Shown here one piece after another: positions 18,023 through 26,763 of a DNA stretch of 26,763 nt. The DNA is taken from positions 1-26,763 of the IMG/VR virus record IMGVR_UViG_3300048927_000768; one strand, written 5' to 3'. The stretch's first letter is position 1, and each line of letters opens with the position of its first letter. A model generated the notes under the pieces. The model was not told the origin of the DNA, did no database searches, and saw only the letters and a program-made list of their open reading frames with translations. Made by a program: the position numbers and the translations under genes. Origin of the DNA: a virus.

Positions 18023-18565
18023 TTACTCTTCGGCGTCCGGATCGCCAAACGAAATTAGCAAGCCACCCTGCGTCATGTCCGGAAATGCGCGGAAGGTCGT
18101 ATTTGTAACGAGTTCGTTGTCGTACGAGTACGTATAATTCAAGTTGGATTGCGGGGCCGCCTTGTGGAGAATGATCGTATCGGCCGGCGTTGCGTAAATG
18201 TCGAGTGGTTCGATTTTCACTTTTTTCGCAAACGGAAACAGCCGGGCCACGATAGCCGCGCTAACGTCTACGCGCTGCTTCGTCGGGTCGGTCGCGTCCG
18301 TTACGAGTACAGCACCGGGAATAATTTTCGATAGTTTCGCGAGGTCGCGTTCAGCGATCGGCACCGCGACCGAAGCCGTCCGACCCGTGATAATGACGTC
18401 CGCTGGCGTTGTGCCGAGCTGATCGATAGGTACGTCGCGAGTCGTTTCTTCGTACGTAAGCACGACGCCGCCCTGTGTTTGCTCGAATACGACGGGCGAT
18501 GTGCCCCCGAAGTCGAACGTTACGCGGGCGGGGCCGAGCGCAATTTTGTTAGCATCTACTGCCAT
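18023..18565 (-). CDS. Major tail (tube) protein
   Basis: 180 aa: MAVDANKIALGPARVTFDFGG, 'GGVVLTYEETTRDVPIDQLGTTPADVIITGRTASVAVPIAERDLAKLSKIIPGA', ending in 'NTTFRAFPDMTQGGLLISFGDPD'. The pattern of a short N-terminal strand, 'D..GttPad.iitG..a.v.vpl.E.dl..l' and a C-terminal Ig-less beta end fits tail tube proteins of Gram-positive siphophages; its place between tail terminator and chaperone confirms it. GGGAGG lies 7 nt before the ATG. The gene is bracketed by hairpins: a strong terminator upstream (18594-18624) and a weaker one downstream (17990-18011). It is a very abundant virion protein. Confidence 0.85.
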   Translation of the reverse strand: MAVDANKIALGPARVTFDFGGTSPVVFEQTQGGVVLTYEETTRDVPIDQLGTTPADVIITGRTASVAVPIAERDLAKLSKIIPGAVLVTDATDPTKQRVDVSAAIVARLFPFAKKVKIEPLDIYATPADTIILHKAAPQSNLNYTYSYDNELVTNTTFRAFPDMTQGGLLISFGDPDAEE

Positions 18566-18593
18566 TTAATAGCCTCCCTGCGGCATACAACGC

Positions 18594-18624
18594 AAAAAGC
18601 CCCAACCGCGAGCGGCTGAGGCTT
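18594..18624 (-). terminator. Strong intrinsic terminator inside the operon, before the major tail gene
   Basis: On the minus strand, AAGCCTCAGCCGC pairs with GCGGTTGGGGCTT (13 positions, some G-U; the innermost pair probably opens to a CTCG loop) and runs into TTTTT. It lies between the tail terminator gene and the major tail gene, ending 28 nt before the ATG at 18565. That leaves no room for a full promoter after it, so read-through or antitermination is needed. Confidence 0.78.
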
Positions 18625-18642
18625 AATCGTGTGTTGCCGTTA

Positions 18643-19026
18643 TTAGATTGTTTGTCCGTCAACCAAAGTCACCGTAAAGTTGACGGAGTAGTTCGGACGT
18701 CCACTCACGTCTAGTCCGAGATAAAGCGGCGCAGACTGATCGGCGAATGACGCTTTGATACGCTGCGTGCCGATGACGAAGGATTGCCGTTGATGAAATT
18801 CGCGATATAGCGAATATGCCGTCGCTTCAGCCGCCGGGCCTGAGCGATTCCGTACGATTACCTGAAACGATGGCCGCCGCGTTGGTAGCCACTGGCTCGG
18901 TGCGTATCCGCCAAAAATACGTACAAAGGCCGCATTGTCGCCGGCCGAATCCGGGAACTCGTTGTGATAGTACGTGTACGGTACGACGGATTCTACGAAT
19001 GATTTAAGTTCCGCGATGGTGAACAC
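18643..19026 (-). CDS. Tail terminator / minor capsid-type neck protein
   Basis: 127 aa from GTG 19026 (product MFTIAELKSFVESVVPYTYYHNEF); a longer in-frame version begins inside the upstream gene. AAGGAG lies 13 nt upstream, overlapping the gp10-like gene's end. Middle: 'NAAFVRIFGGYAPSQWLPTRRPSFQVIVRNRSGPAAEATAYSLYREFH'. End: 'GLDVSGRPNYSVNFTVTLVDG'. This matches the 'minor capsid protein from bacteriophage' type (PF12691), now seen as tail terminators that cap the tube and join it to the neck. Position right before the major tail protein supports this. Confidence 0.78.
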   Translation of the reverse strand: MFTIAELKSFVESVVPYTYYHNEFPDSAGDNAAFVRIFGGYAPSQWLPTRRPSFQVIVRNRSGPAAEATAYSLYREFHQRQSFVIGTQRIKASFADQSAPLYLGLDVSGRPNYSVNFTVTLVDGQTI

Positions 19027-19027
19027 G

Positions 19028-19450
19028 TTATAGCCCCAACTCCTTCCGGATTTCGTCCGCGATCCAGGCATTAACCTTGTCCGCATATTGCTTGACGGGC
19101 TGTTCGAGATATTTCGGTTGTGTGCCGGGCGTGGTCGGATTCACAAACGCAGGCTTACCGCCGAATTCGTGCAGCCATAGCGCGTAATTAAAGCGACCGG
19201 ATTTTCCGTCCTCTGTCGCACTATAGTAAATTTCGCCGGACATCGTATCAGCCGTTTCCGAAAACTCCGTCCAGCTCTCGCGACGTAGAGTTCCGTGTTC
19301 AAGGGGCGCTAATTGCCGACTTGCGTCATGTATCGCCTGGACTCCGCCGTATACTCCGTTACGGGCACCGCGCCGCGCCTTCGCTTCTAGTTGCGATGTC
19401 CAGGAGTCAAACCCGGACGTATCCATTGAAACTCCGTTTGTCTTCGTCAT
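19028..19450 (-). CDS. HK97 gp10-like neck/tail-completion protein
   Basis: 140 aa: 'VYGGVQAIHDASRQLAPLEHGTLRRESWTEFSE', 'GEIYYSATEDGKSGRFNYALWLHEFGGKPAFVNPTTPGTQPKYLEQPVKQYADKVNAWIADEIRKEL'. The 'A.dva.......l.r...w.......yA..lHEf........ P..t.pkfle.a......' pattern is the HK97-gp10_like family (PF04883), which joins head and tail. The ATG overlaps the head-closure stop (ATGA), showing coupling. Its end lies 1 nt before the next gene's GTG. Confidence 0.85.
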   Translation of the reverse strand: MTKTNGVSMDTSGFDSWTSQLEAKARRGARNGVYGGVQAIHDASRQLAPLEHGTLRRESWTEFSETADTMSGEIYYSATEDGKSGRFNYALWLHEFGGKPAFVNPTTPGTQPKYLEQPVKQYADKVNAWIADEIRKELGL

Positions 19451-19767
19451 TTCACGTACACCACCGTTAAAATCGGCTTGCTTGAGAGCATCCGTTTCGG
19501 GCCGCCATTAATTGGCCGGTAAACCTTCGTTACGCCGTACTCGTCCGTGTATTCGATCCGGGCCGCCGGCGGAAAGCTGGGATACTTATCGAAGAGGATT
19601 CGCGCGGACGACGTAACTTCGCGGCCTTGGTCATCAGTCACAACGCGGAATCCTTCTTCGACACGGCATCGGTACGTAACAGGCTCCGGGTCCGGCTGCG
19701 GATTCCACGGATCGTTGTGACCGGGCGCGTAAACGGTGACGGTCTGCTTCAGCGGTATGATTGGCAT
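19447..19767 (-). CDS. Head closure (stopper) protein
   Basis: 106 aa beta-rich: MPIIPLKQTVTVYAPGHNDPWNPQPDPEPVTYRCRVEEGF, then 'VTSSARILFDKYPSFPPAARIEYTDEYG' and 'YRPINGGPKRMLSSKPILTVVYVK'. This is the minor capsid/head-tail joining family related to SPP1 gp16, a small beta barrel that plugs the portal channel after packaging. GGGAGG lies about 10 nt before the ATG and overlaps the connector gene's end. Its order after the connector and before gp10-like supports the call. Confidence 0.82.
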   Translation of the reverse strand: MPIIPLKQTVTVYAPGHNDPWNPQPDPEPVTYRCRVEEGFRVVTDDQGREVTSSARILFDKYPSFPPAARIEYTDEYGVTKVYRPINGGPKRMLSSKPILTVVYVK

Positions 19768-19783
19768 ATAGCGTGACCTCCCG

Positions 19784-20182
19784 TCATAGGACCGTAAATT
19801 TCACGGCCCGTTTAGATAGCTTGACGCCATTCTCCGCGCCTATGATGTCAAGCGCAGATTGCGGAATCAGCCGCGATAGGTCAGCATCAGGACCCGTTAC
19901 CAATTCCGCTTTGAACCCGACGTTAAACACGGACGCGAGCCCGAAAACGTTAATCCCCTGCCGCTGCATACGATTCGTATCGTTAAAGGCGATACTAAGG
20001 ACATTAGCAAACTCGTATACGGCGGCGTCCGGGATAACGTAAGTCGCGTACTTAGTCGTCAGCGTTCGTCCGGCCACGTTTAATATTCGGTTTTTACGTG
20101 CCTCGTCGCTGTCCGCCCAATCCTCCACGTCGATACAGTTTTCCGCGATATAGACGTCCGCGTCCGTTATGCTAATCGCCAT
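19784..20182 (-). CDS. Head-tail connector (adaptor) protein
   Basis: 132 aa: MAISITDADVYIAENCIDVEDWADSDEARKNRILNVAGRTLTTKYATYVIPDAAVYEFANVLSIAFNDTNRMQRQGINVFGLASVFNVGF, ending in a strand-rich SKRAVKFTVL. The helical start with 'a..yi.......dW......Kq.lLN.A...l', one set of core helices and the beta C-terminus resemble adaptors of the SPP1 gp15/HK97 gp6 type that sit under the portal. GGAGG lies 7 nt before the ATG. It follows the post-capsid gene and precedes the stopper. Confidence 0.78.
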   Translation of the reverse strand: MAISITDADVYIAENCIDVEDWADSDEARKNRILNVAGRTLTTKYATYVIPDAAVYEFANVLSIAFNDTNRMQRQGINVFGLASVFNVGFKAELVTGPDADLSRLIPQSALDIIGAENGVKLSKRAVKFTVL

Positions 20183-20194
20183 GATATCGCCTCC

Positions 20195-20422
20195 TTATTT
20201 CGCCGTTTTACGGGGACGGGCCGGCGCGGGCGGTTTCGGTTCAACTTCGGTAATTTCCGACTTTTCCTCGTCGGTCGATTTCGTAATCCACCTCGGGACC
20301 AACCGGTCGAGCGCCGCGATTTCGTCCGGGTCATTCGTTACGTATGTGCCGAGCCAATCGAATACAATCGTTTTACCGCCGGCGGATATCGTATATTTAG
20401 GCGCTGCTTTATACGCAGCCAT
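20195..20422 (-). CDS. 75-aa post-capsid protein (hypothetical)
   Basis: Short protein starting MAAYKAAPKYTISAGGKTIVFDWLGTYVTN, with a proline/lysine-rich basic tail (EPKPPAPARPRKTAK). A small beta-rich start with a charged disordered tail is common in genes found right after the capsid gene of siphophages. Its role is unclear; capsid accessory or connector cofactor are options. GGAG lies 9 nt before the ATG. It follows the terminator-like hairpin of the capsid gene (20453-20476). Confidence 0.72.
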   Translation of the reverse strand: MAAYKAAPKYTISAGGKTIVFDWLGTYVTNDPDEIAALDRLVPRWITKSTDEEKSEITEVEPKPPAPARPRKTAK

Positions 20423-20452
20423 TAAGCGTCACTCCTTCGTCAGTATTTCGTT

Positions 20453-20476
20453 AAAAGAGGGCGTAAGGCCCTCTTT
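20453..20476 (-). terminator. Intrinsic terminator after the major capsid gene
   Basis: Perfect 9-bp stem AAAGAGGGC and GCCCTCTTT (20468-20476 and 20454-20462 read on the minus strand) with a 5-nt loop, directly after the capsid stop codon. It is followed by a short T run (TTTT overlapping the stem end) and then AACG. It looks like a good but possibly leaky terminator in the middle of the operon. Confidence 0.72.
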
Positions 20477-20477
20477 A

Positions 20478-21599
20478 TTAAGAGACGGTAGTCGCTACAT
20501 TTTCGAGGATCGCGACTTTTTCTTTCGCGTTTTTTACGGTGATACCGTACTCGCCGCGAATCTGACGAGCAACGAAGTCCGCGCCAGCCGGCGAAGCGTC
20601 TACGTCCCACAGCGCGCGTCCTTGTAGTGCGGACAGGGACAGAATCGAACGGTCGAACAGCGCTACTTTATTTTTCGGGAAGTTCGGATCAACGATAACC
20701 ATCGCCTCGCTGCCGCCGACCAGATCGCCCACTACCGAAGAGATACGATGACCTGTCGTAGTATCCGTACGCACGGTGCGAATTGTGTCCTTCGCCAATG
20801 CCGAGATTTGACGCGCTCCGGCGGTATTCGTCAGGATTGTATTAACGCTACCCCCTCGCAAGTATACTTGCTCCATTGCGTCATTCAGCGCTTTAGCCGT
20901 TACTTCGCCGCCGGCTAGGTTCGCCTTATGCGCGCCGTTCTGATTCGCAAAATACAGTAGACCGCCGGATGTCGACGGTGTAGCAGCTTGGCCTTGGATG
21001 CGGCGACCATAAATCAGCCAATCGTTAAGCTCGCGCGCCAACTCCTTCAGACGGAGCTGAACTTGGTAATCCAGCTCGTTAGTAACGTTGTGTGTACGTA
21101 CGGCTTGTTGCGTACCGGACACGGCTGCATAACGCTCGATGATTTGCGTAAAGTTGTAGTCCGTGTAGCGGTCGTGACTTTCGTCGACTCCTACACCGGC
21201 CCCTTGAAGCTGCGGACGGGATACGATACGCAATTCGTCACCTGCATCAATATCAGCAGCGGTCGTCCCGTCAAAACCGCGGACAACGGTTACTACATCG
21301 CCGGCTACTGCGGTAACCTTCAGATACTCCTCGCCGGCTACTACGATGGCATTAACGCGGAATTTCGCGCCATCTCCCGTAGCGACAGTAACGGACGTTG
21401 CGGAAGCTGTAGCGTTGGCAGCAGCGGTCGCACGATTCGAGTTCAGGTTATCGGACATCCACTCGTATTTCGTTTGGAACAGCGATTCCCCGTTAATTCC
21501 TACGAGGCCGAGTAGCGTCGGTGCGTCGTCGATAATAAGCGAAATACCCGCCTCTAGTTGGCGGACTTGATCCTGAAAGTCATAAGTCAATGCTGGCAT
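20478..21599 (-). CDS. Major capsid protein (SU10/DUF5309-like HK97 fold)
   Basis: 373 aa. Starts MPALTYDFQDQVRQLEAGISLIIDDAPTLLGLVG, then 'TKYEWMSDNLNSNRAT'. Residues about 65-130 form a beta insertion (SVTVATGDGAKFRVNAIVVAGEEYLKVTAV ... VVRGFDGTTAADI). 'RYTDYNFTQIIERYAAVSGTQQAV' and 'LKELARELNDWLIYGRR' form the E-loop and spine helix region, and 'GGLLYF' and 'GEYGITVKNAKEKVAILENVA' close the fold. This is the SU10-type MCP family. No obvious cleaved delta domain is present; a separate scaffold lies upstream. AAGGGGGAA precedes the ATG. Hairpins flank the gene at 21635-21669 and 20453-20476. Confidence 0.88.
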   Translation of the reverse strand: MPALTYDFQDQVRQLEAGISLIIDDAPTLLGLVGINGESLFQTKYEWMSDNLNSNRATAAANATASATSVTVATGDGAKFRVNAIVVAGEEYLKVTAVAGDVVTVVRGFDGTTAADIDAGDELRIVSRPQLQGAGVGVDESHDRYTDYNFTQIIERYAAVSGTQQAVRTHNVTNELDYQVQLRLKELARELNDWLIYGRRIQGQAATPSTSGGLLYFANQNGAHKANLAGGEVTAKALNDAMEQVYLRGGSVNTILTNTAGARQISALAKDTIRTVRTDTTTGHRISSVVGDLVGGSEAMVIVDPNFPKNKVALFDRSILSLSALQGRALWDVDASPAGADFVARQIRGEYGITVKNAKEKVAILENVATTVS

Positions 21600-21634
21600 T
21601 GATTTTCCCCCTTGATATCTTTGTTTTATAAAAT

Positions 21635-21669
21635 AAAAAGACGACTCGCGCAGAGCCGGCCGTCCTCTT
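21635..21669 (-). terminator. Terminator-like hairpin between scaffold and capsid genes
   Basis: On the minus strand, AAGAGGACG (overlapping the scaffold stop codon) pairs with CGTCTTTTT with two G-U pairs, over an inner imperfect stem (GGCTC/GAGT). The 3' arm ends in TTTTT and continues into ATTTTAT. It lies 36 nt before the capsid ATG. It may act as an attenuator or mark a processed 5' end of capsid mRNA. Confidence 0.6.
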
Positions 21670-22345
21670 ATTTAAGGTTAGTTAACTTGTTCGACAACTC
21701 GATCACCTTCGAGAAGTCCTTCCGTTTCTTCGCGTCTTCCAGTTGCGTCTCCAACGTTTTCCGCTCGTCGGGCTTGGGGTTACTCGGACCGCCAATCGGC
21801 TTCGGCGTGTTCGTAGCAATCAAAAACGGTTTTGTCGCCGTCAATGCTGCGATAGCCTCCGCAACGCCTGTAACGCTGCCATCGTCACCTACGCTAACGC
21901 CCGATTTATCCGCGAGCAGGTACGCATCCTCGATAGCGTCTGGCAATACGTTTGCAGCCGCCGCGGCGATTTTAAACTCCGCCTTCAGCAACCGCTCGTT
22001 CGCGGATTTCAGCGCAGCCTGCCGGGCCGTGTCCGCCTCCGCAGCCGCTTGTTTTGCCGCAGCAAGTTCGGCCGCTGCACGTTCTTGTTCCGTCATGGCC
22101 GCCTTCTGACGTTCGGTTTCCGCAGCCTCCAAGTCGGCGAGCTTCGTCTTGAGTTCATCGTAGTCGGCGTACTTCTTACGTTCGCGGCCGAGTCGTTCCG
22201 CAATCTTGGCGTCTAGTTCCGCCTGCGTCATTTCAAGCTTTTTCGGCGGTTCCGGAGTAGGATCGGTACCTGGTTCCAGTTCGCCCTCCGCAAAAAGCTG
22301 AATATCGAGCGGAAATCTATACTTACGTTTAATTACGTCAGTCAT
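21668..22345 (-). CDS. Capsid scaffolding protein (DUF4355/Gp46-like)
   Basis: 225 aa. N-terminus has 'FPLDIQLFAEGELEPGTDPTPEPPKKLEMTQAELDAKIAERLGRERKKYADYDELKTKLADLEAAETERQ', the usual opening of this family. A long alanine/glutamate-rich coiled coil follows (AAELAAAKQAAAEADTARQAAL). A small globular part is seen at about 120-170, then a positively charged C-terminus. It should guide procapsid assembly and be absent from mature virions. GGAGG lies 8 nt before ATG 22345. It sits directly upstream of the capsid gene in the operon. Confidence 0.88.
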   Translation of the reverse strand: MTDVIKRKYRFPLDIQLFAEGELEPGTDPTPEPPKKLEMTQAELDAKIAERLGRERKKYADYDELKTKLADLEAAETERQKAAMTEQERAAAELAAAKQAAAEADTARQAALKSANERLLKAEFKIAAAAANVLPDAIEDAYLLADKSGVSVGDDGSVTGVAEAIAALTATKPFLIATNTPKPIGGPSNPKPDERKTLETQLEDAKKRKDFSKVIELSNKLTNLK

Positions 22346-22413
22346 TCGTCATACCTCCGATTTATGGCCGTCGCCAATATCCGTCAGTTTAAGGACTTAT
22401 CGTAGGTCCAAGC

Positions 22414-22433
22414 GTTGAATATTATTTTTCAAC
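22414..22433. repeat. AT-rich inverted repeat over the minor head protein stop codon
   Basis: GTTGAA (22414-22419) and TTCAAC (22428-22433) form a perfect 6-bp inverted repeat with an 8-nt AT-only spacer; the MuF-like gene's TAA lies inside it. It shares the decamer CGTTGAATAT with the repeat at 24861-24879. Role unknown. Confidence 0.35.
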
Positions 22434-23270
22434 CGGTTCATTACCGGGTTCCGTTCGGCTTTCACCGAGAACACGTTCCGGACTCCGGAGAGCCGTAATT
22501 TGATGACGACAGTTCGGATGAAAAATCTGTCGGCGCGGCAAGTCGCCAATGTAACGGTAATCGCCCGGCGCATCCGGAACGAGTTTGACGATAAGCCGCT
22601 CGTAGTTGCGGCAGGCGTCCGTTGCTCCGTGGCTCGATATGATTCCGTAAAATGCGCCCCGTTGTACGGCTTCGTTAATCGCGGTCTGCCGTTCCGTTTC
22701 CGCCAGTTTGGTCCGCGTCACCATATCGACGTATACTTCCGGTTTCCAGCGGCGACCGCCTGCGTCAATGATCCCCGTGTCCACTGCGTCACCGAGTGTC
22801 TTCCGCATTCCAGCGAGCATATCCCGATTAATCGTGCGACGGCCGTTAATACCAGCGGCCATATTCGCGCGCATCGACTCGGCGGTAACCTGGCGGACAG
22901 CCGCTTTAACTCGCCGGTCAACGTTCTGCGTTACTGCCAGCAAATCCGCCTGCGTATCCGCAATAACTGCGTTCACGTACCGGCTATTCATGCGATTAAA
23001 CTTCGCGATGTCGGCGGCTGCTTTCCGGGACTCCGCGACGCCAAGCGCAACGAGAGTTTCGATGACGCCGGCGGTTCCGGCTTCCGGTACATGCTTTATG
23101 ACCCAGGCGGCCGACTCTTCGTTTAACAACGCAAGGATTCGCGCAACTTCTCGGAGAGCGGCTTCCGTATTCGTCCGCGACATATCCGTAATATCGAGCG
23201 ATAACAATTCCGCCCGAATACGTTTGATGGCGTCTTTATAGGCAGCGACGAGGATGTCCGTATCAGCCAT
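22422..23270 (-). CDS. MuF-like minor head protein (phage minor capsid protein 2)
   Basis: 282 aa, all-helical N-terminal region, then the Phage_min_cap2/MuF signature: 'YVDMVTRTKLAETERQTAINEAVQRGAFYGIISSHGATDACRNYERLIVKL' and the terminal 'FHPNCRHQITAL' (HPNCRH at 251-256). Relatives are minor head proteins bound to the portal, needed for head morphogenesis and sometimes ejected with DNA. There is no C-terminal toxin extension, so this is the short form. The ATG overlaps the portal stop (TAATG), with GGAGG about 10 nt upstream. Confidence 0.88.
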   Translation of the reverse strand: MADTDILVAAYKDAIKRIRAELLSLDITDMSRTNTEAALREVARILALLNEESAAWVIKHVPEAGTAGVIETLVALGVAESRKAAADIAKFNRMNSRYVNAVIADTQADLLAVTQNVDRRVKAAVRQVTAESMRANMAAGINGRRTINRDMLAGMRKTLGDAVDTGIIDAGGRRWKPEVYVDMVTRTKLAETERQTAINEAVQRGAFYGIISSHGATDACRNYERLIVKLVPDAPGDYRYIGDLPRRQIFHPNCRHQITALRSPERVLGESRTEPGNEPVEK

Positions 23271-24844
23271 TAGACGACGACCTCCGTAACCTCTTCGTTA
23301 AATACTGATCCGTTGACGGTTCCGTTAATCCGCGTTTCATCTTCGCGCATTCGCGTCAACACTTCGGCGGCTTGCTGATCGTCAACGGCATCCATGCGCT
23401 TAATAGCGGATTTTACGTCGAGCGTCGGCTTGGCCCCGGTCCGTATCGAGTAAATTTCCGCCTCTTCCTTCTCGTTCTTCGGGATACCGTCGCGCCAATT
23501 AATCTTCGGATAAACAGGCTTATACGGGACGAAACCCTTAACGCCACGGTTCGCGTAGTTTTCGAGTTCCATCGCGGACCACAGCGCGTCCCGAAGCGCT
23601 TTGTCCATATGCGTACGGATACGCTTGACCTTTGACAAGATCGGCATAAAACGGGCTTTGATTGCGACGCCGTCCGTGTGCGACGTACCGGTTCCGCCTT
23701 TATCTGCGCCGGCCATCGTCGTGCCGAACAGCCATTGTGGCGTTTCGGACATGACGAATACTAGCGAAAGCAACGTGTCCAACTCTTTAAATGCAGATTC
23801 GAGCTGCGATTCCCACGTCATATAACCGGGCACGACATCCGTTTTCTCAACCGCGATGTATTTGCCGCCCCAACGTGTTCCGCCGTTGCCGTCATCGTCA
23901 ATTTCGGGCCCGTAGGCAATCGGGTCCGAATGCTTCCATAGGATATAGTCGATCTGGACGAGCCGATCGTTAATCGCTGCTAATACGGATTCGATTTTTT
24001 CGATATTGCCCGTACCCTTCCAATCGTAATCGACCGTTTTGTACGGTGCGTGAAAGACGAGCGGCCGGTTAACGCCTGTTGCAACAACATCTTCGTTACG
24101 TCCGGTCGGAACAGCTTCGCCAATCCGGAAACGCGGAATCTCTGTACCAAAACGATTATCGACGCCGGCGGTTTCTGCCTTATACCGCTCGTATACGATG
24201 TAGCCCGGCAGATGACGCTCGACAACGAGGTAAGGCGTTTTGGTCGACTTGTTACCGGTCATAACACGTTCGACAACTCCCGCACTCTCTTCGACCCATT
24301 CGATATATGCGATATTAATAGCGGTAAACTTCTTCCGGCTGCCGGCAGCCAGTTCCGGAAACACGTACATTGTATCGACCGATTCGATAATCGGCTCCGG
24401 ATTCTGCGGCGGAATCGGAAGGCCAGCGGCAGTCAGCGCGGAAAAGTCCTGCCGGTCGGCAAAGTACGTTTTGAACCACGCGTCGCCTGTAATGCCTCCG
24501 CCCGTTACCGTTTCGTGGATTAGCTGCGTAACGTCGTTTTCCTCGACGATACGGTTAAGCGCGTCCTGTTCGGCGGAGTCGTCAGGGTTGCCGGACTCGT
24601 ACGACGGCGGATCGCCAACCATTAAATCGGCCGGCTTGGCGACGAGTACGTCCATTAAGTTGACCGCGATATAAAGTTTCGCGAGTTGCGGGGCGGCCGG
24701 TGTGTCACGTAATAGTTCCGTGGCCCGGTCGTAAACGTCGAACAGGCGACCTTCGTAGATTGCGCGGGCACGTTTATACTTCGATAGGCGTTCGATGTCG
24801 GCGGATGGCGGATAGAGCGCGCCGGGTACGAATAGCTTCGTCAA
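23270..24844 (-). CDS. Portal protein (SPP1 gp6-like)
   Basis: 524 aa from TTG 24844, chosen for AAAGGAGG 7 nt upstream. Typical segments: 'YKRARAIYEGRLFDVYDRA', 'AVNLMDVLVAKPADLMVGDPP', 'GGGITGDAWFKTYF', 'NRPLVFHAPYKTVDYDWKGTGNIEKIESVLAAINDRLVQIDYILWKHSDP' and 'SLVFVMSETPQWLFGTTMAGADKGGTGTSHTDGVAIKARFMPIL'. These fit the SPP1/phage portal family that forms the dodecameric DNA channel at one capsid vertex and docks the terminase. It lies after the small Tad2-like gene and one nt into the MuF-like gene. Confidence 0.92.
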   Translation of the reverse strand: MTKLFVPGALYPPSADIERLSKYKRARAIYEGRLFDVYDRATELLRDTPAAPQLAKLYIAVNLMDVLVAKPADLMVGDPPSYESGNPDDSAEQDALNRIVEENDVTQLIHETVTGGGITGDAWFKTYFADRQDFSALTAAGLPIPPQNPEPIIESVDTMYVFPELAAGSRKKFTAINIAYIEWVEESAGVVERVMTGNKSTKTPYLVVERHLPGYIVYERYKAETAGVDNRFGTEIPRFRIGEAVPTGRNEDVVATGVNRPLVFHAPYKTVDYDWKGTGNIEKIESVLAAINDRLVQIDYILWKHSDPIAYGPEIDDDGNGGTRWGGKYIAVEKTDVVPGYMTWESQLESAFKELDTLLSLVFVMSETPQWLFGTTMAGADKGGTGTSHTDGVAIKARFMPILSKVKRIRTHMDKALRDALWSAMELENYANRGVKGFVPYKPVYPKINWRDGIPKNEKEEAEIYSIRTGAKPTLDVKSAIKRMDAVDDQQAAEVLTRMREDETRINGTVNGSVFNEEVTEVVV

Positions 24845-24863
24845 TTTTCGTCCTCCTTTCCGT

Positions 24864-24879
24864 TGAATATAAATATTCA
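24864..24879. repeat. Palindrome TGAATAT-AA-ATATTCA between Tad2-like and portal genes
   Basis: TGAATAT (24864-24870) and ATATTCA (24873-24879) form a perfect 7-bp inverted repeat around AA in the 39-nt gap. It is preceded on the plus strand by CGT, giving the same CGTTGAATAT decamer as at 22413. It lies 15-20 nt from the portal Shine-Dalgarno. It may be an operator or an RNA processing hairpin. Confidence 0.35.
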
Positions 24880-24883
24880 GGCG

Positions 24884-25114
24884 TTACTCTACTACCGCCC
24901 AATCTTCCGCAAGGATATCAGCCTGCGACGCTAGCCAGCCTGGTTGCATTTCGTTATTTGCCGTCTTCATTCCGATACAGTCCTGCATTTCATATCCCAT
25001 GAACACCGCGTTACCAGCTTTAATCAGTTTCAACCACATGCCCTTACCGTTCCACCCTTCGCGCGCAACCTTTTGCCCGTCTTTCAGCGCTTCAACCGCT
25101 TGTCCGAAATTCAT
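24884..25114 (-). CDS. Tad2-family (DUF2829) anti-Thoeris protein candidate
   Basis: 76 aa. The family signature is clear at both ends: 'MNFGQAVEALKDGQKVAREGWNGKGMWLKL' and 'MKTANNEMQPGWLASQADILAEDWAVV' (key positions W21, N22, G23, M49, K50, W60, S63, Q64, D66, E70, D71, W72). DUF2829/Tad2 proteins from phages bind and sequester the cyclic ADP-ribose-type signal (gcADPR isomers) made by Thoeris TIR proteins. This copy is short, with a reduced middle part between the two signatures compared with typical ~85-95 aa members. GGAGG lies 7 nt before the ATG. It is embedded between terminase and portal, an unusual late-gene location. Anti-Thoeris activity is inferred from the family only. Confidence 0.85.
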   Translation of the reverse strand: MNFGQAVEALKDGQKVAREGWNGKGMWLKLIKAGNAVFMGYEMQDCIGMKTANNEMQPGWLASQADILAEDWAVVE

Positions 25115-25128
25115 CGTATGACCTCCGT

Positions 25129-26763
25129 CTATTTGTAGAATACTGCTGGCTTACTCCGTACCTTCTTACGCGATGTCTTCGATATACTCACGGCCATTTC
25201 GAGGCTGTCCACGGTATCATCGTGTGATCCCGTTCCATACTGCTCGAATTGTTCGAGAAGCAGCGCATGCTTCCGCGTAAACTGAATAGCCCCGGACTCA
25301 ATGTCGGGGGCTAACGCTTCTATCCGGAGTTCCTTCCGTGACCGCTGATATATCTCTTTAACGCGTGCCCTGGCCGGATACCCAACGTCCGCCAACGCTT
25401 GCTTCAGCTTATGAACGAAAAATTCCTGCGCCGCTTGCGCTTCGGCCGCGACCGCTATCGGTTGCCATCGTTGGACGATCGTGACTATATCCCGAAGGAA
25501 CACGTCCGGATGGACCCGCTGGCCGTACGAATCAACGACGTAGAGCGTACCCGTTTTCTTGTTCCGGGCGACAACGCTAATCGCCGAATAGTCCCCGCGC
25601 GTCTTCCCCATCGCGAAATCGACGCCCAGGTACGTGTCCCACTCGGCCGGGTCCGTAAAGTCGAAATCCTTACCGTCCCAATACGTAAACTTGTCCGGAC
25701 GGAAAACGGCAGACTCTTCGTCAATCGGATTATTCATATACTCCGTGTTAAACGCCTTCGACCCGTTATCCCATTTCCACGTCATCAGCTTCCATAATGG
25801 CTGCACTTCCGGCCACAATACGCGGGCCCCGGCATCCATTTCCGCCTGATTCGCGAGATATAACGCCAGCGCTTCGGCCGCCCGGCTTGCTGCGTCAGCT
25901 TCCGGATTCTGGTATACGAGTCGGCACGCTTCCCACAGGTCCATTCGCGCCGGCCATTCGATAATCGCTCGATACACTTTTGTCTTAAAATCGGCCCGGT
26001 CCCGAAGGATGCGAACGAGTAGCGCGTCATGATGCACCGTCGTTCCCATATATACGATGGCCGTCTTTTTACCGCGGGGATCGCCGAGTGGGATAACGAC
26101 CTGCGCGAACCAGTCCCGCATTTCCTGCCGGAGCTGCTCCGTATTCGTGTTACGTTTATCTTCGAGGTCGTCGCATATAATCAAATCCGGCCGAACTCCG
26201 TTCCAGTTTCGACCCCGGAGCGCTTGGCCGGTCGATGCCGCTTCTACGCGGGCAATCGGGTATTTAACGCCTTCGATCCGCTGTTCGGCCGCGATAAACT
26301 CCGCCGAGTTATCCTTTACGTTTTCCTGCTGCTTAACGGATAGCAAGGGGCCGAAATCGGCCCTTAGCTTCTCGTTATGCTTCAGTTGCGTCGCGATCCA
26401 ATCGAGGTTGCCGCTCGATACCGTCGGCGTCTCCGATATAAGGATTACGTATCTCCTCTTCCGGAAGCACAGTTCCCGCAGCGGAAACGCCTTCGATAAA
26501 TACGTTGACTTGGCGTGAGAGCGCGGGGCCGCTACGGCAATCTTCGCATTGACTTCGTTATTAGATACGTCGTCCATAATATCGGCAATCTCACGGTGAA
26601 AATCCGGCATATCCTCGGTAGATGTCGATTCGAATCCGTCCCAATTACCGATATTGCCGGGGTTCCGTGCTTCCGAAAAGTATTCGAGCGCGAACGTTAA
26701 TAGATCGTCTTCGGCCTCATTTATACGTTGTAGCCGTTCATACTCCGCCGCAGCCCCGTCCAA
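25129..26763 (-). CDS. terL: Terminase large subunit (possibly 5'-truncated by window edge)
   Basis: 544 residues visible. ATPase domain: Walker A-like 'APRSHAKST' (79-87), Walker B 'PDLIICDDLED' (192-202), coupling motif near 'YMGTTVHHDA' (238-247). Nuclease domain: 'GVDFAMGKTRGDYSAI' with D382, 'AAEAQAAQ' with E441, and 'GSHDDTVDSLEMAV' with D515/D516. It packages DNA through the portal and cuts concatemers. The reading frame is open to the last base of the window, where a TTG could be the start; upstream sequence is needed. The small subunit gene must lie outside. It precedes the Tad2-like gene by 14 nt. Confidence 0.92.
   Translation of the reverse strand: MDGAAAEYERLQRINEAEDDLLTFALEYFSEARNPGNIGNWDGFESTSTEDMPDFHREIADIMDDVSNNEVNAKIAVAAPRSHAKSTYLSKAFPLRELCFRKRRYVILISETPTVSSGNLDWIATQLKHNEKLRADFGPLLSVKQQENVKDNSAEFIAAEQRIEGVKYPIARVEAASTGQALRGRNWNGVRPDLIICDDLEDKRNTNTEQLRQEMRDWFAQVVIPLGDPRGKKTAIVYMGTTVHHDALLVRILRDRADFKTKVYRAIIEWPARMDLWEACRLVYQNPEADAASRAAEALALYLANQAEMDAGARVLWPEVQPLWKLMTWKWDNGSKAFNTEYMNNPIDEESAVFRPDKFTYWDGKDFDFTDPAEWDTYLGVDFAMGKTRGDYSAISVVARNKKTGTLYVVDSYGQRVHPDVFLRDIVTIVQRWQPIAVAAEAQAAQEFFVHKLKQALADVGYPARARVKEIYQRSRKELRIEALAPDIESGAIQFTRKHALLLEQFEQYGTGSHDDTVDSLEMAVSISKTSRKKVRSKPAVFYK

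What the first reader, a model, noticed from the sequence alone, without database searches (positions are those of the whole stretch)
24884..25114. Tad2-like anti-Thoeris gene embedded between terminase and portal
The 76-aa product has both Tad2/DUF2829 signatures but a reduced middle region. Its position inside the packaging/head block means expression with late genes unless another promoter exists, which seems late for an anti-defence protein. It may protect against Thoeris triggered by late structural proteins, or bind a different nucleotide signal.
Basis: partly seen in the sequence, partly recalled or inferred. Interest (0 to 1): 0.6.

Follow-up and report, generated by a model that had tools for sequence, protein, structure and literature searches.

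The report
Compact Tad2 anti-Thoeris phage gene
A phage carries a small gene of the Tad2 family, whose known members soak up the alarm molecules of the bacterial Thoeris defence, inserted as a single gene between two head-building genes; this is a real but ordinary member of a known family, notable mainly for its small size and for a gene position that recurs in unrelated phages.

Summary
Window 24884-25114 (-) encodes a 76-aa protein that matches Pfam PF11195 (Tad2-like) over its full length (E 6e-27, 94 bits, cut-off 25). Its AlphaFold2 model (pLDDT 94) matches only Tad2 structures above noise (TM 0.80-0.86). The middle stretch is short: 33 residues, against 42 in ModTad2, 54 in SptTad2 and 60 in HgmTad2. 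A published review assigns cyclic-dinucleotide binding to that insertion and ADPR-type ligand binding to the loops kept here, so I predict a sponge for TIR-made ADPR signals that does not bind dinucleotides. Not tested biochemically. The gene is a one-gene insertion with its own ribosome-binding site, with no promoter match, exactly at a mosaic boundary between terminase and portal: 0 of 74 relatives have it there, and some carry homing-type nucleases instead. Tad2 genes in unrelated phages also sit in packaging, head or tail blocks (at least 16 loci), two of them downstream of terminase and upstream of portal. Late expression is not a paradox: staphylococcal and streptococcal Thoeris are triggered by the major capsid protein (PMC12578639). 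New member of a known kind.

The parts
24884..25114 (-). tad2-like gene, 76 aa, compact Tad2 (PF11195)
   Evidence: Pfam E 6e-27; PDB sequence hits to SPO1, Mod, Spt and HgmTad2; AF2 plus Foldseek TM 0.80-0.86 to Tad2 structures
25122..25126 (-). ribosome-binding site GGAGG of the tad2-like gene
   Evidence: sequence read directly
25129..26763 (-). terminase large subunit, upstream gene, cut by the record end
   Evidence: phrog_38 E 2.7e-96
23270..24844 (-). portal protein, downstream gene, TTG start
   Evidence: phrog_533 E 1.7e-36
24862..24880 (-). near-palindrome CTGAATATTTATATTCAAC in the tad2-portal gap; marks where homology to relative L112 resumes
22422..23270 (-). minor head protein
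   Evidence: phrog_4611 E 1e-46
21668..22345 (-). head scaffolding protein
   Evidence: phrog_2303 E 1.5e-14
20478..21599 (-). major head protein; by analogy with published Thoeris systems a candidate trigger of the defence
   Evidence: phrog_1328 E 6.5e-50; trigger role inferred from PMC12578639

Best explanation
This is a compact member of the Tad2 family of phage signal sponges, picked up as a single-gene insertion at the terminase-portal junction of a temperate Bacillota siphovirus. Shown here: family, fold, retention of the beta1-beta2 loop (EGWNGKGM) and of the beta4-alpha3/alpha3 segment (PGWLASQADILAEDW), loss of most of the beta2-beta5 insertion, its own ribosome-binding site, and insertion at a mosaic boundary. 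Inferred: it is translated from the late packaging/head transcript and assembles as a tetramer. It accumulates together with the portal and capsid proteins that activate TIR-based defences. It binds the ADPR-type signal made by the TIR enzyme (a gcADPR isomer or His-ADPR) so that the Thoeris effector is not switched on before virions are assembled. It should not bind cyclic dinucleotides through the HgmTad2/SptTad2-type second site.
For: Pfam full-length match. phmmer and profile hits to all solved Tad2 proteins, E 1e-13 to 1e-28. AF2 pLDDT 94.2. The top 24 Foldseek matches are all Tad2; the next match has E 0.17. Invariant F3, R18, G20, W21, N22, W60, D66, L68, D71 and W72 in 36 homologues. 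PMC12043709 assigns the gcADPR pocket to loop beta1-beta2, loop beta3-beta4, strand beta4, loop beta4-alpha3 and helix alpha3, and dinucleotide binding to a separate insertion between beta2 and beta5. PDB 8kbk holds both 1',2'-cADPR and cGG (title). Middle length 33, against 42, 54 and 60. No sigma-70-like promoter in 22000-26763 (0 found, 3.6 expected). Homology to L112 (93.9% DNA identity) runs 18275-24885, and homology to L052 starts at 25136. 0 of 74 relatives have tad2 at this junction. Thoeris is triggered by the major head protein (PMC12578639). Purifying selection.
Against: No ligand, activity or expression data. One of the pocket elements, loop beta3-beta4, lies in the shortened part, so affinity or specificity may differ. 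Residue-level pocket contacts and the tetramer could not be modelled with these tools. The host is not identified, and no intact Thoeris locus was shown in a host of this phage; the one ThsB-TIR-like match, in Sporosarcina limicola (which carries the closest homologue), is marginal and has in-frame stops. Promoter scanning covers only sigma-70 consensus. Capsid triggering is documented only for staphylococcal and streptococcal Thoeris.
Confidence: 0.72

Rival explanations
1. A Tad2-fold sponge whose ligand is a signal other than the Thoeris ones (for example N1-cADPR or another TIR, CBASS or Panoptes-type nucleotide), because the pocket was reshaped by the shortened middle.
For: One pocket element (beta3-beta4) falls in the shortened part. 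Tad2 homologues already differ in ligand: gcADPR for SPO1, His-ADPR for Mod, cGG for Spt, 1',2'-cADPR and cGG for Hgm. SpbK, triggered by a portal protein, makes N1-cADPR.
Against: The other pocket elements are intact and invariant, and the insertion credited with dinucleotide binding is missing, so classical CBASS dinucleotides are unlikely.
Confidence: 0.15
2. Anti-CRISPR-type activity: the protein acts like AcrIIA7, a homologue registered as an inhibitor of type II CRISPR-Cas.
For: PDB 8kbi and 9kzr, both homologues, are named AcrIIA7 / Inhibitor of Type II CRISPR-Cas system.
Against: The same protein is also deposited as HgmTad2 with nucleotide ligands bound (8kbj), so its structurally supported role is signal binding; late expression would suit an anti-CRISPR poorly (inference).
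Confidence: 0.05
3. A passenger gene with no current use: a recently inserted moron that is expressed but gives no benefit in the present host.
For: None of 74 terminase-portal relatives, including a 98% portal relative, carries it here. The same junction hosts selfish nucleases.
Against: Intact ORF with a good ribosome-binding site, all invariant residues kept, dN much lower than dS against the closest homologue.
Confidence: 0.06
4. A structural or packaging accessory protein, since it sits between terminase and portal.
For: Position; a similar position in unrelated phages L027 and L172.
Against: Absent from 74 relatives with homologous terminase and portal. The closest homologue sits elsewhere, between tail terminator and major tail protein. 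Other homologues sit in replication or recombination regions.
Confidence: 0.02

Closest known systems
SPO1 Tad2 (gp34.65; PDB 8sme, 8smf, 8smg)
   Same: Same family and fold (TMq 0.80-0.85, 40-46% identity in structural alignment); the two conserved motif blocks align end to end
   Different: 89 aa (PMC13299392) against 76; the middle region is shorter here
ModTad2 (Myroides odoratus prophage; PDB 8v3e, 9eib, His-ADPR bound)
   Same: Best Foldseek match (8v3e_F, TM 0.85/0.88, 46% identity)
   Different: Middle 42 residues against 33; its alpha3 approach reads WTPSVSD, while here it is PGWLASQAD, as in Spt/HgmTad2 (GWLASQTD)
SptTad2 and HgmTad2/AcrIIA7 (PDB 8wjd, 8kbi to 8kbm)
   Same: Best phmmer hit by E-value (SptTad2 4e-16); same GWLASQ motif
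   Different: Lacks most of the 54-60 residue middle that carries the cyclic-dinucleotide-binding insertion
Sporosarcina limicola prophage Tad2 (L002/L047)
   Same: 82% identical protein with the same 33-residue middle: the only close relative found
   Different: Located between tail terminator and major tail protein, not between terminase and portal

Membership tests
Tad2 / PF11195 | Full-length profile match above the curated cut-off | tested here: met
   94.4 bits against a cut-off of 25, profile 1-73 of 73
Tad2 / PF11195 | Tad2 fold | tested here: met
   AF2 pLDDT 94; 24 Foldseek hits with E below 1e-5, all Tad2, TMq 0.80-0.86
Tad2 / PF11195 | Conserved loop beta1-beta2 and beta4-alpha3/alpha3 segments that line the ADPR pocket | tested here: met
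   GWNGKGM and W60...D66xL68xxD71W72 present; invariant positions kept. Individual ligand contacts were not checked
Tad2 / PF11195 | Loop beta3-beta4 pocket element of usual length | tested here: inconclusive
   Middle shortened to 33 residues; the model shows a small hairpin at about 37-42
Tad2 / PF11195 | Homotetramer with two pockets | not testable with these tools
   Only monomers can be predicted here
Tad2 / PF11195 | Binds a TIR-made ADPR signal and rescues phage from Thoeris | not testable with these tools
   Needs a binding assay and plating
HgmTad2/SptTad2 dual-site subtype | Long insertion between beta2 and beta5 that binds cyclic dinucleotides | tested here: not met
   Middle 33 residues against 54 and 60; role of the insertion from PMC12043709
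AcrIIA7 (anti-CRISPR) | Inhibition of Cas9 | not testable with these tools
   Homologue name only

The most novel reading that the evidence does not exclude
Tad2 sponges are repeatedly deployed 'just in time': phages insert them into their packaging/head transcript so that the sponge is made together with the capsid or portal protein that triggers TIR defences. The compact subtype seen here would be a minimal, ADPR-only sponge suited to this use.
Probability: 0.3. Interest if true: 0.55.

Novelty: new member of a known kind. Interest (0 to 1): 0.36.

Why it matters
It removes an apparent paradox (an anti-defence gene among late genes): if the defence senses capsid or portal, the antidote belongs in the same transcript. 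The compact form is also a natural test of which part of Tad2 reads dinucleotides and which reads ADPR signals.

Tried and rejected
Chance ORF or frame artefact: rejected (full-length Pfam match, structure, dN much lower than dS). Core packaging gene: rejected (absent from 74 relatives with linked terminase and portal; closest homologue elsewhere). Own promoter: none matched the sigma-70 consensus in 22000-26763 (0 found, 3.6 expected); a non-consensus promoter is not excluded. 'Uniquely short': rejected, shorter phage homologues exist (L023 and L027, middle of 29 residues). Host Thoeris in the Sporosarcina genome with the closest homologue: only a marginal ThsB-TIR match with stops, no conclusion. 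The key Tad2 structure papers (10.1038/s41586-023-06869-w, 10.1038/s41586-024-08122-4, 10.1038/s41586-025-08930-2) are not held, so residue-level pocket contacts rest on a review. Position enrichment of Tad2 near head genes was not tested statistically: the loci are a convenience sample and not all were annotated.

Full report
What is there. The ORF at 24884-25114 on the minus strand encodes 76 aa (MNFGQAVEALKDGQKVAREGWNGKGMWLKLIKAGNAVFMGYEMQDCIGMKTANNEMQPGWLASQADILAEDWAVVE). It has GGAGG seven bases before the ATG. It starts 14 nt after the terminase stop and ends 39 nt before the portal start. Gene order on the minus strand is terminase large subunit, tad2-like, portal, minor head, scaffold, major head, then tail genes and endolysin. 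Terminase, portal, minor head, scaffold, major head, tape measure and endolysin were identified with PHROGs. A tyrosine integrase lies at 1-1026, so the phage is temperate or derived from one. The record is a 26.8-kb virus fragment.

Family and fold. Pfam PF11195 (Tad2-like) matches at E 6e-27 over the whole profile. All solved Tad2 proteins are hit by sequence. The AlphaFold2 model built with 36 homologues has mean pLDDT 94.2 and pTM 0.80. Its 24 best PDB matches are all Tad2 chains, including gcADPR-, His-ADPR-, cADPR- and cGG-bound forms, with TMq 0.80-0.86; the next match is at E 0.17. Membership in the family is therefore secure.

The shortened middle. Between M26 and W60 the protein has 33 residues, against 42 in ModTad2, 54 in SptTad2 and 60 in HgmTad2; homologues range from 29 to 60. 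According to a review (PMC12043709), the gcADPR pocket of Tad2 is made of loop beta1-beta2, loop beta3-beta4, strand beta4, loop beta4-alpha3 and helix alpha3. The same review says cyclic dinucleotides bind through an insertion between beta2 and beta5, away from the gcADPR pocket. PDB 8kbk, which contains 1',2'-cADPR and cGG together (title), fits that. Here the loop beta1-beta2 and the beta4-alpha3/alpha3 segment are intact, with all ten invariant residues of the family sample, while the insertion is mostly gone. The prediction is binding of ADPR-type signals only. This is inference; contacts and affinity were not measured or modelled.

How it got there. A relative with a 98% identical portal (L112) matches the window at 93.9% DNA identity from 18275 to 24885, and the match stops at the tad2 stop codon. 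Its terminase is only 37% identical to that of the window, and it lacks tad2. A different relative, L052, matches the terminase (82% aa identity) with DNA homology starting at 25136, and it also lacks tad2. The tad2 gene thus sits exactly on a mosaic boundary. Its own closest relative (82% aa, 75% DNA over 24880-25113 only) is in a Sporosarcina limicola prophage between the tail terminator and the major tail protein. So the gene most likely moved as a single unit. Of 74 loci with linked terminase and portal, none has tad2 in between. Several carry other mobile cargo there: Vsr/DUF559-type nucleases (L055, L138), an HNH protein (L142), a LAGLIDADG protein (L150) and, by its sequence motif only, a DNA methyltransferase (L108). 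The junction is a cargo site.

Late expression. No sigma-70-like promoter was found in 22000-26763, so co-expression with packaging and head genes is likely though not shown. This is not a problem for an anti-Thoeris role. In staphylococcal and streptococcal Thoeris the trigger is the major head protein (PMC12578639), and the related TIR defence SpbK is triggered by a portal protein (PMC12847820). A signal sponge is needed only when the signal appears.

The position recurs. Among roughly 45 Tad2 loci inspected, at least 16 non-identical ones have a packaging, head or tail gene close by, most within about 1 kb. Terminase then tad2 then portal: L027, and L172 with small genes between tad2 and portal. 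Downstream of or next to a portal: L048, L044, L043. Just before scaffold and/or major head genes: L040, L036, L039, L049, L051. Before terminase: L008, L035, L037, L042. Tail or connector: L002, L013, L016, L038. Others lie near replication or recombination genes (NinG, Sak4, DNA polymerase, ribonucleotide reductase). I did not test for enrichment, so I claim recurrence, not preference.

Verdict. A real, conserved, compact Tad2 family member. The most likely function is sequestration of a TIR-made ADPR signal during late infection. New member of a known kind; the broader 'made together with its trigger' idea is open and testable.

Noticed in passing
L055, L138, L142, L150, L108 (terminase-portal gaps): In relatives the terminase-portal junction holds mobile cargo: Vsr/DUF559-like nucleases, HNH, LAGLIDADG and a DNA methyltransferase-like gene.
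   Followed up: partly
L012:2275, L022:5302, L040:4458, L164:1946: A small protein with a (K/R)KPVVxEA motif (weak PGDYG match in L040) lies next to tad2 in four of about 45 Tad2 loci, and in only one of over 100 loci without tad2. A possible partner or co-travelling gene of unknown function.
   Followed up: partly
24862-24880 and 22414-22433: AT-rich near-palindrome TTGAATATnTATATTCAAC in two gaps of the head operon (4 strand matches, 0.02 expected); also at the same site in L112, and degenerate in L117. Could be a regulator site, an RNA hairpin or a recombination linker.
   Followed up: partly
L027:5001-5213 and L172:5272-5541: Two unrelated phages also carry a Tad2 gene directly after terminase and upstream of portal.
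   Followed up: yes
L012, L016, L017, L160; phrog_1048 and phrog_872: Tad2 domains at the C-terminus of longer proteins with unknown N-terminal parts.
   Followed up: no
G001 (S. limicola) and G002 (Sporosarcina sp. P13): Each genome has two Tad2 genes. S. limicola also has a marginal ThsB-TIR match with in-frame stops (L162).
   Followed up: partly
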